19,490 nt of DNA from Butyrivibrio sp. UBA3740 (GTDB lineage Bacteria > Bacillota > Clostridia > Lachnospirales > Lachnospiraceae). A model generated the notes under the pieces. That model was not told where the DNA came from. It did no database searches and worked only from the letters and a program-made list of their open reading frames with translations. The stretch is taken from the NCBI GenBank assembly GCA_002372465.1, contig DFGW01000133.1:1-19490 (forward strand), written 5' to 3'. The position numbers were made by a program, and so were the translations under genes. The stretch's first letter is position 1; the number at the start of each line of letters is the position of its first letter. Shown here piece after piece: positions 15,518 to 19,464 of the stretch.

Positions 15518-16696
15518 TCAGTGATGGAAAAGTCGAAGGCCGGTAAATGCCATTACCATGTTGTGGTTGTTGGCTGCCTCGATAACATTGTCATCCCTTA
15601 CAGATCCACCGGGCTGAGCAACATACTTAACGCCGCTTCTGAAGGCTCTTTCGATGTTGTCTCCAAACGGGAAGAACGCATCTGAACCAAGAGCCACATC
15701 AGTGTTCTTATCAAGCCATGCTCTCTTTTCAGCCTGTGTGAAGACTTCAGGCTTCTCCTTGAAGATGTTCTGCCACTTTCCCTCTGCCAGTACATCCATG
15801 TAGTCCTCGCCGATATAGAGGTCAATAGCGTTATCCCTGTCAGGACGCTTGATGCTGTCAAGGAAGGGAAGGTTAAGAACCTGAGGAGCCTGGCGAAGGA
15901 ACCAGTTATCAGCCTTAGAACCTGCAAGTCTTGTGCAGTGGATTCTGGACTGCTGTCCTGCTCCGATACCGATGGCCTGTCCGCCCTTTACGTAGCATAC
16001 TGAGTTTGACTGAGTGTACTTAAGGGTAATAAGGGCAATCTTGAGGTCGATGAGAGCTGACTTAGGAAGGTCCTTATTGTCTGTAACAATGTTACTGAAC
16101 ATCTCATCATTTATCTCGATGAAGTTATGACCCTGCTCGAAGGTCACGCCAAATACCTGCTTCTTCTCAATCTGCTCAGGAACATAGTCGGGATCGATCT
16201 TGATAACTGCATAGTTTCCGCCCTTTTTAGCCTTAAGGATCTCAAGGGCTTCATCTGTATATCCGGGAGCAATTATGCCGTCGGAAACTTCTCTTTTAAC
16301 AAGTCTTGCTGTATCTGCGTCGCAGACATCCGAAAGAGAGATGAAATCTCCAAAGGATGACATTCTGTCAGCGCCACGGGCTCTTGCGTAAGCGTTTGCA
16401 AGGGGACTGAGTTCCCCAAGATCCTCTACCCAGTAGATCTTCTTCTCGATGTCTGTAAGAGGTGTTCCAACTGCAGCGCCGGCAGGTGAAACGTGCTTGA
16501 AGGAGGTTGCTGAAGGAAGTCCTGTAGCTTTTTTGAGCTCAGAAACAAGCTGCCATCCGTTAAGTGCATCTAAAAGGTTGATAAATCCGGGTCTTCCGTT
16601 AAGTACCTCAATTGGAAGATCTGAGCCATTCTCCATATAAACTCTTGAAGGCTTCTGATTTGGGTTACATCCATACTTTAACTGAATCTCATTCAT
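15518..16696 (-). CDS. purH: AICAR formyltransferase, stand-alone (PurH transformylase domain only)
   Basis: Transfers the formyl group of 10-formyltetrahydrofolate to AICAR, giving FAICAR, the penultimate step of IMP synthesis. The 392 residues correspond to the C-terminal transformylase part of bifunctional PurH: LKYGCNPNQ (6-14), the catalytic Lys67-His68 in SFKHVSPAG, SFGDFISL in the middle, and the QPGGSVRDD segment near the C-terminus. The N-terminal IMP cyclohydrolase domain is absent rather than degraded, since the protein begins directly at the transformylase fold. That activity is supplied by the PurO-type gene five bases upstream. AAGGAG within the end of purO serves as ribosome-binding site at a rather long distance (11 bases). 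The pair is downstream of a ZTP riboswitch that senses a derivative of this enzyme's substrate. Confidence 0.93.
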   Translation of the reverse strand: MNEIQLKYGCNPNQKPSRVYMENGSDLPIEVLNGRPGFINLLDALNGWQLVSELKKATGLPSATSFKHVSPAGAAVGTPLTDIEKKIYWVEDLGELSPLANAYARARGADRMSSFGDFISLSDVCDADTARLVKREVSDGIIAPGYTDEALEILKAKKGGNYAVIKIDPDYVPEQIEKKQVFGVTFEQGHNFIEINDEMFSNIVTDNKDLPKSALIDLKIALITLKYTQSNSVCYVKGGQAIGIGAGQQSRIHCTRLAGSKADNWFLRQAPQVLNLPFLDSIKRPDRDNAIDLYIGEDYMDVLAEGKWQNIFKEKPEVFTQAEKRAWLDKNTDVALGSDAFFPFGDNIERAFRSGVKYVAQPGGSVRDDNVIEAANNHNMVMAFTGLRLFHH

Positions 16697-16701
16697 CTTA
16701 A

Positions 16702-17421
16702 TTAGTTCTCCTTCCTGATATTCTTGTTGTAAATTCTGGTCTCTACTGCTCCTGTTGCGATCTCAATGTATCTTGTGAAAAGAGATACCTTGTTATCGGA
16801 GTTTAAAGCTGACCAGACATCATCTGTGAACTTATTGATATCCCCTGAAATATTTACTTTGGTAGGCTCGCCTGTAAAGCTTGGAAGCGGATTTCCATCC
16901 CCCATGTAGGTGTGGATAAAGAAGCCCTCGCCTGCCTTAGGATTCTCGTATGTGTAGGTAAATCTCTGGCATGAGGAAGGATCACCGTCGTTGCTCTTTA
17001 AGATAGAGAGTGCAAAGTCATACTTGCCGTTCTTAACGTTCATGATACCTGAAATTCTTGGTGTGTAGTTAGGCGCATCAGGCTCAAACTCTCTGGTTCT
17101 TAAAGACTCCTCAAAGCTCTGTCCTGCCTGCATAAGCTCATAGATTGTATCTGTCTGATCGCCGTTTGTTACGATGGTTGATGTTCCTCTAACCCTTACA
17201 GGTGCATAGATGATAAGGCTCGGGTCCTCCATCTTGGATGGATCAAAAGCCTCTGTGCGGATGCCATCTCCCTCTGTTACGAATACTCTGTTTCTTGAGT
17301 TCTCGCTTCTTCCCATGATGAAGTAAGCGCAAACTGCATACTTTCCATCCTCAGATGTGCCAAGGATGATTCCTCTCCCCGGATAGGTTGTGCTTCCAAT
17401 TTCCTGTTTAAGATCTACCAT
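16702..17421 (-). CDS. purO: IMP cyclohydrolase, PurO-type (archaeal-type family)
   Basis: Closes the FAICAR ring to make IMP, the last step of purine synthesis. The 239 residues match the PurO/IMP_cyclohyd family (PF07826), first known from archaea and unrelated in fold to the PurH cyclohydrolase domain. Visible landmarks are PGRGIILG (14-21), GRSENSRNR (37-45), YAPVRV (72-77) and NGDQTDT (86-92). The ATG at 17421 follows AAGGAGG (17427-17433) by five bases; longer readings would run into the palindromic element upstream. It is the first gene of a two-gene unit with the formyltransferase, and its leader contains a ZTP riboswitch and terminator. The family assignment rests on motif memory and on its neighbour lacking this activity, and I consider it strong. 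Confidence 0.9.
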   Translation of the reverse strand: MVDLKQEIGSTTYPGRGIILGTSEDGKYAVCAYFIMGRSENSRNRVFVTEGDGIRTEAFDPSKMEDPSLIIYAPVRVRGTSTIVTNGDQTDTIYELMQAGQSFEESLRTREFEPDAPNYTPRISGIMNVKNGKYDFALSILKSNDGDPSSCQRFTYTYENPKAGEGFFIHTYMGDGNPLPSFTGEPTKVNISGDINKFTDDVWSALNSDNKVSLFTRYIEIATGAVETRIYNKNIRKEN

Positions 17422-17441
17422 TGTGTCCTCCTTTTGATATG

Positions 17442-17569
17442 TTGCGCGTGAAGCAGAGCCATGCATCGAAATGCATACGGACTGCTTGCAGGACAGTAAG
17501 CATTTCGATATATGGCGAGCAACGCGAACGAGGAAATGCGAAGCATTTTCGAGTCTGCTTCACGCGCAA
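17442..17569. repeat. 128-base palindromic element with perfect 16-bp ends
   Basis: TTGCGCGTGAAGCAGA (17442-17457) returns as its exact reverse complement at 17554-17569. Inside are two further hairpins: CATGCATCGAAATGC (17460-17474) with GCATTTCGATATATG (17500-17514), with two imperfect positions, and AAATGC/GCATTT (17534-17548) around GAA. The RNA could fold into a three-way junction. It lies between the riboswitch terminator and the purO ribosome-binding site, beginning within the terminator T-run. It encodes nothing convincing. It may be a small non-autonomous or REP-like repeat, or a second leader structure. Confidence 0.75.
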
Positions 17570-17613
17570 AAATACCGCCTGAGCATTCCACTAAAAGCGG
17601 TTGCCCAGGCGGT
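17568..17613 (-). terminator. Riboswitch-controlled terminator of purO-purH
   Basis: On the minus strand ACCGCCTG (17606-17613) pairs with CAGGCGGT (17574-17581), extended inward by a GC pair after one mismatch, and ATTTTT follows. The upstream arm contains the conserved ZTP-aptamer segment CCGCCTGGGC, so forming the terminator destroys the aptamer. This is a classic transcription-attenuation platform. Confidence 0.85.
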
Positions 17614-17675
17614 CGACTAATCATTTTATAATCTGTACTCCCCTGTGGTTGCCCACTCATCCGCCAGTTGTACAG
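17602..17675 (-). promoter_or_regulatory. ZTP riboswitch (pfl motif) controlling purO-purH
   Basis: On the minus strand the aptamer starts with CTGTAC (17670-17675), which pairs with GTACAG (17633-17638) as the outer stem. It encloses CTGGCGGATGA, the hairpin GTGGGCAACCAC (17645-17656) and CAGGGGAGT, all typical of the pfl motif. After a linker comes the invariant 3' segment CCGCCTGGGCA (17602-17612). GGCGG at 17661-17665 can form the pseudoknot with CCGCC at 17608-17612. This family binds ZTP/ZMP, the alarmone made from AICAR when 10-formyl-folate runs short. Ligand binding should block the overlapping terminator and turn on the downstream genes. Confidence 0.93.
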
Positions 17676-17683
17676 ACACGTAT

Positions 17684-17712
17684 AACATACACTGTTTTGG
17701 CGAAAATTTCAA
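17684..17712 (-). promoter_or_regulatory. Promoter of the ZTP riboswitch and purO-purH
   Basis: TTGAAA (17707-17712, five of six), a 17-base spacer and TATGTT (17684-17689, four of six) give a start near 17677, directly before the aptamer. An alternative extended TGTTATAC lies a few bases downstream. The position relative to the aptamer supports the call more than the boxes do. Confidence 0.6.
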
Positions 17713-17747: not shown

Positions 17748-17822
17748 CTTCACAGTCTCCCTGTCTTGTCTTCACATGTATGAATCATGCGCCTCGGGGC
17801 CTTTCGTGGGGAGACTGTGAAG
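17748..17822. repeat. 14-bp perfect inverted repeat in the divergent region
   Basis: CTTCACAGTCTCCC (17748-17761) is repeated in reverse complement at 17809-17822, with 47 bases between. The interior contains a smaller TTCA...TGAA dyad (17771-17784) and a GC-rich patch around 17790-17800. It is upstream of both divergent promoters and is not part of either predicted leader. Its role is unknown. Confidence 0.6.
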
Positions 17823-17832
17823 GACAAGCATT

Positions 17833-17844
17833 GGAAACGTTTCC
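17833..17844. promoter_or_regulatory. LacI/CcpA-type operator (cre-like palindrome)
   Basis: GGAAACGTTTCC is a perfect 12-base palindrome with the central CG typical of LacI-family operators. With its preceding T it nearly fits the catabolite-responsive consensus. It is centred roughly 48 bases before the predicted start of the alpha-glucosidase-like gene, so sugar-dependent control of that gene is likely. Confidence 0.65.
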
Positions 17845-17925: not shown

Positions 17926-19464
17926 ATGCCTGGATGGTTGAGAGATGCGATATTTTACGAGATATATCCCCAGTCCTTCAAGGATACCAACAGCGATGGT
18001 ATCGGAGACCTGGAGGGAATTATAGAAAAGCTTGACTATGTAAAGAGTCTTGGCTGCAATGCCCTGTGGATCAATCCCTGCTTTGATTCACCTTTTAAGG
18101 ATGCAGGTTACGATGTAAGGGATTATAAGAAGGTTGCTCCAAGGTACGGAACTAATGAGGACCTTGTAAGGCTCTTTGAGGAGGCTCACAATCGCCACAT
18201 CCATGTGCTTCTGGACCTGGTTCCCGGTCATACATCAGAGGAACATGAGTGGTTCCTTGAGAGTAAAAAGGCCGAAAGGAATGAATATTCAGACAGATAT
18301 GTCTGGACAAAGGCTGCATTCCAGGGAATAGGCGGACACCCCTATATAGGCGGAGAAGCCGACAGAGACGGCTGCTACATGCTTAACTTCTTCAAGTGCC
18401 AGCCAGCCCTTAACTACGGCTTTGGTAAAGTAACTGAAGACTGGCAGATGTCCCCGGATGATCCTGCCTGCATCGCCACAAGAGAAGCCATGAAGGATGT
18501 TATGCGTTTCTGGCTTGATAAGGGGTGCGATGGTTTCCGCGTAGACATGGCAGATTCCCTGGTAAAAGAGGATGATGAGAATAAGTCAGCTACCGGTGCC
18601 ATCTGGAAGAACATCAGAGAAATGCTGGATACAGAATATCCCGAGGCTGCCATCATCTCTGAGTGGAGCAATCCATATCAGTCCCTGAAAAACGGTTTTC
18701 ACGCTGACTTCTATCTGGATCACCACGGAAACGGCTACAACACTCTTTTACGTGATAATGAGACTCCCGGAGGCGACCACAGCTTCCTTAAGAAGGACGG
18801 AAACGGCGATATCATGAGGTTCCTTAATGACTATCTGCCCAAGTACGATGCCACCAAGGATTACGGCTATATCAGCTTTATCACCTGCAACCATGACACA
18901 CCAAGACCCAGAAGGACTCTTGGCTACGATGAACTTAAGCTGGCTTATGCCCTGTTCCTAACTCTTCCCGGTGTTCCCTTCATATACTACGGCGATGAGA
19001 TTGGCATGAGATATCTTGATATTCCTACCAAGGAGGGCGGCTACCACAGAACAGGTACAAGAACTCCGATGCAGTGGGATAACAGCAAGAACCACGGTTT
19101 CTCAAATGCCTCTGCTGATAAACTCTACCTTCCACTGGACCCATCAGAGGATGCTCCGACAGTTGAGGATCAGTTAAAAGACCCTTCATCGCTCCTTAAC
19201 ACAGTAAAAGAGCTGACAAAGCTCCGCCACGAACATGCTGCACTCCAGGCTGATGCAGAGTTTGAAGTCATCTATGCCGAGCAGGATGAATTCCCATTCG
19301 TCTTCCGCCGCGGAGACCTGATAATCGGAATCAATCCTTCAGAGAAAAAAGCCACAGCAAGCCTTCCTAAGAACGGCATGAAGACCATTTACAGTATAGG
19401 CGATGTGGAACTCAAGGACGCTTCCTTGCACATGCAACCCCAGAGCTTTGTAGTTCTTAAATAA
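17926..19464 (+). CDS. GH13 family alpha-glucosidase-like glycoside hydrolase, cytoplasmic
   Basis: A 512-residue alpha-amylase-superfamily enzyme with no signal peptide, so it acts on sugars taken into the cell. The GH13 catalytic triad is complete: nucleophile Asp207 in GFRVDMA, acid/base Glu246 in IISEW, and transition-state stabiliser Asp324 in NHDTPR. The N-terminal DTNSDGIGD (20-28) matches the calcium-binding loop of oligo-1,6-glucosidase-type enzymes, and QPALNYG (159-165) is the fifth conserved region. A small beta domain closes the C-terminus (about 440-512). It most resembles alpha-glucosidases and oligo-1,6-glucosidases, but a trehalose- or sucrose-acting enzyme cannot be excluded. 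The ATG at 17926 is chosen for GGGAGGT seven bases or less upstream. A cre-like operator precedes it, and a further gene seems to follow about 25 bases after its stop. Confidence 0.93.
   Translation: MPGWLRDAIFYEIYPQSFKDTNSDGIGDLEGIIEKLDYVKSLGCNALWINPCFDSPFKDAGYDVRDYKKVAPRYGTNEDLVRLFEEAHNRHIHVLLDLVPGHTSEEHEWFLESKKAERNEYSDRYVWTKAAFQGIGGHPYIGGEADRDGCYMLNFFKCQPALNYGFGKVTEDWQMSPDDPACIATREAMKDVMRFWLDKGCDGFRVDMADSLVKEDDENKSATGAIWKNIREMLDTEYPEAAIISEWSNPYQSLKNGFHADFYLDHHGNGYNTLLRDNETPGGDHSFLKKDGNGDIMRFLNDYLPKYDATKDYGYISFITCNHDTPRPRRTLGYDELKLAYALFLTLPGVPFIYYGDEIGMRYLDIPTKEGGYHRTGTRTPMQWDNSKNHGFSNASADKLYLPLDPSEDAPTVEDQLKDPSSLLNTVKELTKLRHEHAALQADAEFEVIYAEQDEFPFVFRRGDLIIGINPSEKKATASLPKNGMKTIYSIGDVELKDASLHMQPQSFVVLK

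What the first reader, a model, noticed from the sequence alone, without database searches (positions are those of the whole stretch)
17568..17675. ZTP riboswitch with explicit mutually exclusive pairing before purO-purH
The minus-strand leader has the pfl/ZTP consensus. One segment, CCGCC at 17608-17612, can pair with GGCGG at 17661-17665 (aptamer pseudoknot) or with GGCGG of the terminator at 17575-17579, which runs into a T-tract. Ligand should favour the first and switch on the genes. The unit encodes the enzyme that consumes AICAR, the precursor of the ligand, and the enzyme for the next step, so the sensor reports directly on the blocked step. ZTP riboswitches on folate and purine genes are known; control of a PurO-type cyclohydrolase is less familiar.
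Basis: partly seen in the sequence, partly recalled or inferred. Interest (0 to 1): 0.7.

Follow-up and report, generated by a model that had tools for sequence, protein, structure and literature searches.

The report
ZTP riboswitch controlling final purine enzymes
A gut bacterium (Butyrivibrio) carries a known kind of RNA sensor for a purine intermediate in front of the genes for the last two steps of purine synthesis; the switch looks ordinary and intact, and a dispersed palindromic repeat sits just behind it.

Summary
Observation confirmed, ordinary in kind. The minus-strand leader at 17681-17596 matches the ZMP/ZTP aptamer RF01750 (63.3 bits, cut-off 39); the three named segments are where stated. 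CCGCC (17608-17612) belongs both to the aptamer pseudoknot and to a strong terminator (-28.9 kcal/mol, z -6.6). In 54 aligned leaders aptamer cells are 99.3% and terminator cells 96.1% paired. This is the strand-displacement ON-switch shown experimentally for other ZTP riboswitches (PMC10085676, PMC7337938). Downstream lie a PurO-type IMP cyclohydrolase (PF07826) and a stand-alone AICAR formyltransferase. Among 99 genomes searched, mostly of the same genus, the riboswitch is directly before purO in 49 of 61 that have it, and before full-length purH in 10 of 24. A new member of a known kind, with a little-described target. More novel is its neighbour: a 128-bp palindrome (17442-17569) flush with the terminator. 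All 12 full-length copies examined, in about seven contexts, abut an intrinsic terminator (random positions 17 of 876); 11 of 12 lie in ZTP, SAM or T-box(-like) leaders.

The parts
17684..17712 (-). sigma-70-like promoter TTGAAA-17-TATGTT, ending a few bases before P1
   Evidence: consensus match; 6 found in the region against 4.8 expected, so weak alone; by eye 27 of the 38 relatives printed have TATGTT or TATCTT at this place, the rest other hexamers
17596..17681 (-). ZMP/ZTP riboswitch aptamer (RF01750): P1 17670-17676/17632-17638, P2 17653-17656/17645-17648, P3 17615-17617/17603-17605
17661..17665 (-). GGCGG in J1/2, 5' strand of the aptamer pseudoknot
   Evidence: pairs with 17608-17612 in 51 of 51 distinct leaders; one pair is A-U instead of G-C in 15
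17608..17612 (-). CCGCC switch segment: pseudoknot 3' strand or terminator 5' strand
17574..17613 (-). intrinsic terminator hairpin (12-bp outer stem, 5-bp inner stem)
   Evidence: (arms 17574-17585 and 17602-17613)
17568..17573 (-). terminator T-tract (ATTTTT)
17442..17569 (.). 128-bp dispersed palindromic element, 16-bp perfect terminal inverted repeats, between terminator and ribosome-binding site; distant match to RF01699 on the + strand (35.5 bits, below the cut-off of 48)
17427..17434 (-). ribosome-binding site AAAGGAGG
   Evidence: by eye
16702..17421 (-). PurO-type IMP cyclohydrolase gene (PF07826), start taken at 17421; the longer ORF start at 17466 lies inside the palindrome
15518..16696 (-). 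stand-alone AICAR formyltransferase gene (NF005492; PurH without the cyclohydrolase part), starting 5 nt after the purO stop

Best explanation
A ZMP/ZTP-sensing transcriptional ON riboswitch. When ZMP (AICAR) or ZTP accumulates, ligand binding locks P3 and the pseudoknot (17661-17665 with 17608-17612), so the invading strand (17574-17585) cannot displace them; the terminator does not form and RNA polymerase reads into purO and the AICAR formyltransferase gene, whose products remove AICAR and finish IMP synthesis. Without ligand, 17602-17613 pairs with 17574-17585 and transcription stops at the T-tract. Shown here: the aptamer match, both alternative structures, their conservation in relatives, and the gene order. 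Inferred from studies of other ZTP riboswitches: ligand identity, kinetics and direction of control. Inferred from families: the two enzyme activities.
For: RF01750 63.3 bits against 39. Aptamer helices and pseudoknot: 99.3% of 1071 cells paired, 11 pairs with double changes, 0 of 500 shuffles as high for paired cells, double changes or covariation score. One pseudoknot pair is A-U instead of G-C in 15 of 51 distinct sequences; the same aptamer base pairs in the terminator as U-A in 8 and U-G in 7 of those 15. Terminator stable, and 96.1% of 510 cells paired. Riboswitch directly before purO in 49 of 61 purO genomes, and purO followed by an AICAR formyltransferase in 61 of 61. Mechanism demonstrated in other members (passages of PMC10085676, and PMC7337938).
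Against: No experiment on this RNA. The T-tract is interrupted (ATTTTT). Number of further pair types in the aptamer is no higher than in shuffles (22 against 22.3). Terminator conservation is only slightly above shuffles (96.1 against 95.0% paired; covariation 0.213 against 0.187; pairs with double changes and pair types reached by 377 of 500 shuffles), as its 5' strand is nearly fixed by the aptamer. In five aligned leaders (L046, L047, L049, L063, L067) the invader lacks the last GG of GGCGG, so the terminator there does not reach the whole CCGCC. The aptamer alone does not fold natively without a pseudoknot model. 19 of 80 purO loci with 600 nt upstream show no riboswitch. A stable palindrome follows the switch and could add a ligand-independent effect.
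Confidence: 0.94

Rival explanations
1. The aptamer is intact but the output is blunted in this strain: the 128-bp palindrome after the terminator forms a very stable hairpin that impedes transcription, translation or mRNA stability regardless of ligand.
For: Element and RBS region fold at -61.4 kcal/mol, z -5.3; presence varies among relatives; inverted compared with the other 11 full-length copies examined.
Against: The hairpin ends before the RBS, which is predicted unpaired, and no T-tract follows its 3' arm. Relatives with the same or other palindromes at this place keep a full-length purO match behind them.
Confidence: 0.1
2. The RNA has drifted to another ligand and is a variant riboswitch.
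For: Only that ligand specificity was not tested here.
Against: Full-length match to the ZTP model at 63 bits with conserved core, in front of the AICAR-consuming genes.
Confidence: 0.02
3. Control is translational, by hiding the ribosome-binding site.
For: Some riboswitch classes work that way (recalled).
Against: The RBS (17427-17434) lies over 130 nt past the T-tract and is predicted unpaired; a terminator overlaps P3.
Confidence: 0.02

Closest known systems
ZMP/ZTP (pfl) riboswitch, RF01750; Clostridium beijerinckii pfl and Thermosinus carboxydivorans switches
   Same: Aptamer core, J1/2-P3 pseudoknot, and a terminator whose 5' arm is the P3/pseudoknot strand.
   Different: Controls a PurO-type cyclohydrolase plus a stand-alone AICAR formyltransferase rather than pfl or bifunctional purH; a palindromic repeat lies between switch and gene.
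ZTP riboswitch before bifunctional purH
   Same: Same sensor and same two enzymatic steps; found directly upstream in 10 of 24 relatives with a full-length purH (called bifunctional from frame length of 501-556 aa and full PF01808 match, the cyclohydrolase domain was not searched). purH is among the commonest pfl-RNA genes in PMC2864571 (passages).
   Different: Here the two steps are assigned to two separate proteins, the cyclohydrolase being of an unrelated fold.
Archaeal PurO, IMP cyclohydrolase (PDB 2NTK, 1KUU)
   Same: PF07826 family; R43, Y72 and E113 align with R30, Y59 and E104 of 1KUU, consistent with the Arg/Glu/Tyr mechanism stated in PMC6797443 (passages; which residue numbers these are is recalled).
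   Different: Below both PurO equivalog cut-offs (50.7 and 42.3 bits against 150 and 158.35); bacterial.
Clostridiales-1 RNA, RF01699 (listed as an sRNA)
   Same: The palindrome matches the model weakly (35.5 bits); a homologous copy in a relative's ZTP leader passes the cut-off (L126, 52.3 bits).
   Different: Window copy below the gathering score, and of 30 loci with related copies scanned only L126 has a cut-off match at the element itself; canonical copies sit at stop codons (within 8 nt in 21 of 26 examined), this group at terminators.

Membership tests
ZMP/ZTP riboswitch (RF01750) | Covariance-model score above the gathering cut-off over the full model | tested here: met
   63.3 bits against 39, positions 1-86 of 86
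ZMP/ZTP riboswitch (RF01750) | P1, P2, P3 and the J1/2-P3 pseudoknot, supported by covariation | tested here: met
   99.3% paired; double changes in P1 (6 pairs), P2 (3), P3 (1) and the pseudoknot (1)
ZMP/ZTP riboswitch (RF01750) | Transcriptional expression platform overlapping P3 | tested here: met
   (by structure; termination itself not assayed)
ZMP/ZTP riboswitch (RF01750) | Located before purine or one-carbon genes | tested here: met
ZMP/ZTP riboswitch (RF01750) | Binds ZMP/ZTP and changes termination | not testable with these tools
   needs in-line probing and in vitro transcription
PurO IMP cyclohydrolase | PF07826 domain | tested here: met
   233 bits against 28.1
PurO IMP cyclohydrolase | NCBI equivalog cut-offs for PurO (NF003167, TIGR01922) | tested here: not met
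   50.7 and 42.3 bits against 150 and 158.35; works like a PurO by context and aligned residues, not filed as that equivalog
PurO IMP cyclohydrolase | Catalytic Arg, Tyr, Glu | tested here: met
   aligned to R30, Y59, E104 of 1KUU; that these are the catalytic three is recalled
Clostridiales-1 RNA (RF01699), for the palindrome | Gathering score | tested here: not met
   35.5 against 48

The most novel reading that the evidence does not exclude
The palindrome between the switch and purO belongs to a group of small mobile or domesticated repeats that home on the T-tract of intrinsic terminators, chiefly those of attenuated leaders (T-box, SAM, ZTP), mostly in one orientation. It is related to RF01699, which would then be a dispersed repeat family rather than a set of sRNA genes, with sister groups specialised for terminators and for stop codons. 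If retained for function, it could act on the read-through mRNA of many different riboregulators.
Probability: 0.45. Interest if true: 0.5.

Novelty: new member of a known kind. Interest (0 to 1): 0.3.

Why it matters
It shows the ZTP sensor placed before two different gene sets for the same two steps (full-length purH, or a PurO-type enzyme plus stand-alone AICAR formyltransferase), which fits a sensor tied to the metabolic step rather than to a gene family. It also puts a riboswitch on a bacterial PurO-type enzyme, a family that the two archaeal studies whose passages I saw treat as an archaeal signature. The repeat flush with the terminator is the more open question: it offers a testable case of insertion, or selection, directed at transcription terminators.

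Tried and rejected
A pattern for the aptamer core found 2 of the 80 loci where Rfam later found 57. The terminator scan missed the hairpin. A first terminator test at element borders used only even hairpin lengths and found 10 of 12 (control 4 of 360); repeated with all lengths (12 of 12, control 17 of 876). Considered and rejected: that the element is simply RF01699 (below cut-off); that the longer purO ORF start at 17466 is used (it lies inside the palindrome); that the upstream inverted repeat (17748-17822) is a repeat family (one copy in this assembly).

Literature. 'ZTP riboswitch' with 'PurO': 0 papers. 'ZTP', 'riboswitch', 'IMP cyclohydrolase': 4 papers, passages seen in 2, neither on PurO under this riboswitch; the other 2 seen as listing. 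'pfl motif', 'purH', 'riboswitch': 1 paper (passages). 'ZTP riboswitch', 'purH', 'folate': 1 paper (passages). 'ZTP riboswitch', 'terminator', 'pseudoknot': 20 papers, 18 listed, passages seen in 2. 'PurO' with 'IMP cyclohydrolase', 'bacteria', 'purH': 5 papers, passages seen in 2. PMC11477304 passages hold nothing on ZTP. The 2015 paper that defined the class is not held, so whether it lists purO is unknown. 'Clostridiales-1 RNA': 2 papers on unrelated subjects, listing only. Searches on repeats were seen as listings only, so I make no claim that terminator-homing repeats are absent from print. A notebook count of 58 of 80 loci was wrong and was corrected in a later note (57 of 80).

Full report
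CHECK. The window is one contig of a Butyrivibrio-like genome (G000:C99; 3.19 Mb in 263 contigs, 76.65% complete; closest purO in named records is from an uncultured Butyrivibrio, 96% identical). Rfam finds one gathering-level RNA in it: RF01750 at 17681-17596 minus, 63.3 bits. The three segments named in the finding are exactly where it says.

ANATOMY. Read on the minus strand: a promoter-like TTGAAA-17-TATGTT (17712-17684), P1, the J1/2 GGCGG, P2, linker, P3 with CCGCC in its loop, then the invading strand GCTCAGGCGG and a T-tract. The terminator folds at -28.9 kcal/mol, and in the whole leader the predicted minimum has P1, P2 and the terminator but not P3. The same five bases (17608-17612) are needed by both the pseudoknot and the terminator.

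CONSERVATION. Relatives of the cyclohydrolase gave 80 loci (the best 80 of 220 confirmed). RF01750 reaches its cut-off in 57 of 80 (18, 20, 11 and 8 of 20). Of the 23 misses, four have only 9-116 nt upstream; the other 19 have 600 nt upstream and none shows the whole core by pattern, one (L095) showing its 3' word only; such patterns are insensitive. Alignment A1 holds 54 rows: the window and 53 of the 57; L038, L040, L055 and L061 were left out as near-duplicates or truncated. Aptamer: 99.3% of 1071 cells paired, against 91.9% in shuffles and 37.6-47.9% for slid partners; 11 pairs with double changes; further pair types no higher than in shuffles. One pseudoknot pair is A-U instead of G-C in 15 of 51 distinct rows. 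Terminator: 96.1% of 510 cells paired against 95.0% in shuffles and at most 48.4% slid; 2 pairs with double changes, reached by 377 of 500 shuffles. This is weak evidence by itself, as expected when one strand is fixed by the aptamer. In the 15 rows with the changed base the terminator pair is U-A in 8 and U-G in 7. In five rows the invader stops short of the final GG.

GENES. 16705-17421 is PF07826 IMP cyclohydrolase-like (233 bits), below the archaeal PurO equivalog cut-offs but aligned with archaeal PurO structures, with R43, Y72 and E113 opposite R30, Y59 and E104 of 1KUU (that these are the catalytic three is recalled, and passages of PMC6797443 name Arg, Glu and Tyr). 15521-16696 is a stand-alone AICAR formyltransferase (NF005492, 718.5 bits against 415). 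Of 99 genomes searched (own, 60 of the genus, 38 of the order), 61 have PF07826 and all 61 have a short AICAR formyltransferase next to it; 24 others have a full-length PF01808 protein, taken as bifunctional PurH from its length; none has both. The riboswitch lies within 325 nt before the purO domain in 49 of the 61 and within 567 nt before the full-length purH domain in 10 of the 24; six more riboswitch copies fall outside the limits used, 1.5 kb for purO and 2.5 kb for purH. One of the 12 purO genomes without it, G016, has its contig end 152 nt beyond the purO domain. In a draw of 60 genomes of the class (own and one of its genus included), 31 have PF07826 and 18 have RF01750. Reading the two tables together by hand, the riboswitch is directly upstream in 3 of the 31 (own, G030, G132), 2.3-4.4 kb upstream on the same strand in 10, and not within 5 kb in 18. 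Whether the 10 are single operons was not tested. Passages of PMC3261824 and PMC6797443 describe PurO as an archaeal or euryarchaeal signature.

MECHANISM AND PRECEDENT. In C. beijerinckii pfl the invader displaces P3 and migrates through the pseudoknot unless ligand is bound (passages of PMC10085676); in T. carboxydivorans the stabilised pseudoknot is the antiterminator (passages of PMC7337938). The present leader has the same parts in the same order. PMC2864571 already listed purH among the commonest targets and noted overlapping terminators (passages). The finding is therefore a new member with a less-described gene target.

THE REPEAT BEHIND THE SWITCH. Between the T-tract and the RBS lies a 128-bp palindrome (16-bp perfect arms); with the RBS region it folds at -61.4 kcal/mol. 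One other copy was found in this assembly (87% identical), and 46 of 99 genomes, own included, have a match at E 0.01 or better, many of them short. From only 31 loci were examined (L002, L003, L113-L141; many listed matches were not fetched): 12 hold a stretch of 101 bp or more and 19 a shorter one. All 12 abut an intrinsic terminator whose T-tract runs into the element; sham positions in the same loci give 17 of 876. That control is not restricted to intergenic DNA, so it overstates the contrast. Of the 19 partial copies 8 have a terminator-like hairpin in a wider search, four of them (L122, L123, L126, L127) at 67-71 nt, about where the unmatched arm would end; 11 have none; no control was run for the wider search. 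The 12 fall into about seven contexts, so they are not 12 independent events: ZTP-purO (window, L114, L115, L139), two T-box-like contexts seen twice each (L003 and L113; L116 and L117: by eye, no Rfam match at the cut-off), T-box (L118, L120), SAM (L125), and a tRNA gene (L132). Eleven of 12 have the same end towards the terminator; the window's copy is inverted, though mis-assembly of a palindrome in a draft assembly is possible. Among 58 purO leaders 34 have 60 nt or more after the T-run by an approximate cut; 5 hold this family and 7 and 4 hold two other repeat clusters, the rest small clusters or singles, some of them weakly structured. The element matches RF01699 below cut-off; of 30 related loci scanned, one (L126) has a cut-off match at the element. 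Canonical RF01699 copies are dispersed repeats (2 to 28 matches per genome by the table, ten genomes). Of 30 fetched, the four below the cut-off were dropped; in 22 of the other 26 a stop codon of an open frame of 80 codons or more lies near the 5' end on the same strand, within 8 nt in 21. No random control was run for that, and some of these loci look orthologous. Mobility, function and exact insertion points are not shown.

VERDICT. The observation and the interpretation stand; the kind is known. The surprise, if any, is the repeat.

Noticed in passing
window 17442-17569: 128-bp palindromic repeat flush with the riboswitch terminator; 12 of 12 full-length copies examined (of 31 loci, about seven contexts) abut intrinsic terminators, 11 of 12 in one orientation, the window's copy being the exception.
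   Followed up: partly
L142-L171 (RF01699 copies in ten genomes): Clostridiales-1 RNA (RF01699, listed as an sRNA) is a multicopy dispersed palindrome there; in 21 of 26 copies examined its 5' end is within 8 nt of the stop codon of an open frame on the same strand; no random control was run.
   Followed up: partly
purO leaders of L037, L055, L058, L060, L065, L066, L069 and others: The same post-terminator spot holds other repeat families in other Butyrivibrio strains, some in tandem.
   Followed up: partly
window 17833-17844: Perfect palindrome GGAAACGTTTCC, resembling a LacI/CcpA-type operator (recalled), in the divergent region before the alpha-amylase-family gene at 17929; also upstream of the riboswitch in L039.
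   Followed up: no
window 17748-17822: 14-bp perfect inverted repeat around a 47-nt loop between the divergent genes; single copy in this assembly.
   Followed up: partly
G076:C7, G140:C36, G150:C21 and others: In several genomes of the class a ZTP riboswitch lies 2.3-4.4 kb upstream of a PF07826 gene on the same strand, perhaps longer ZTP-led purine operons.
   Followed up: no
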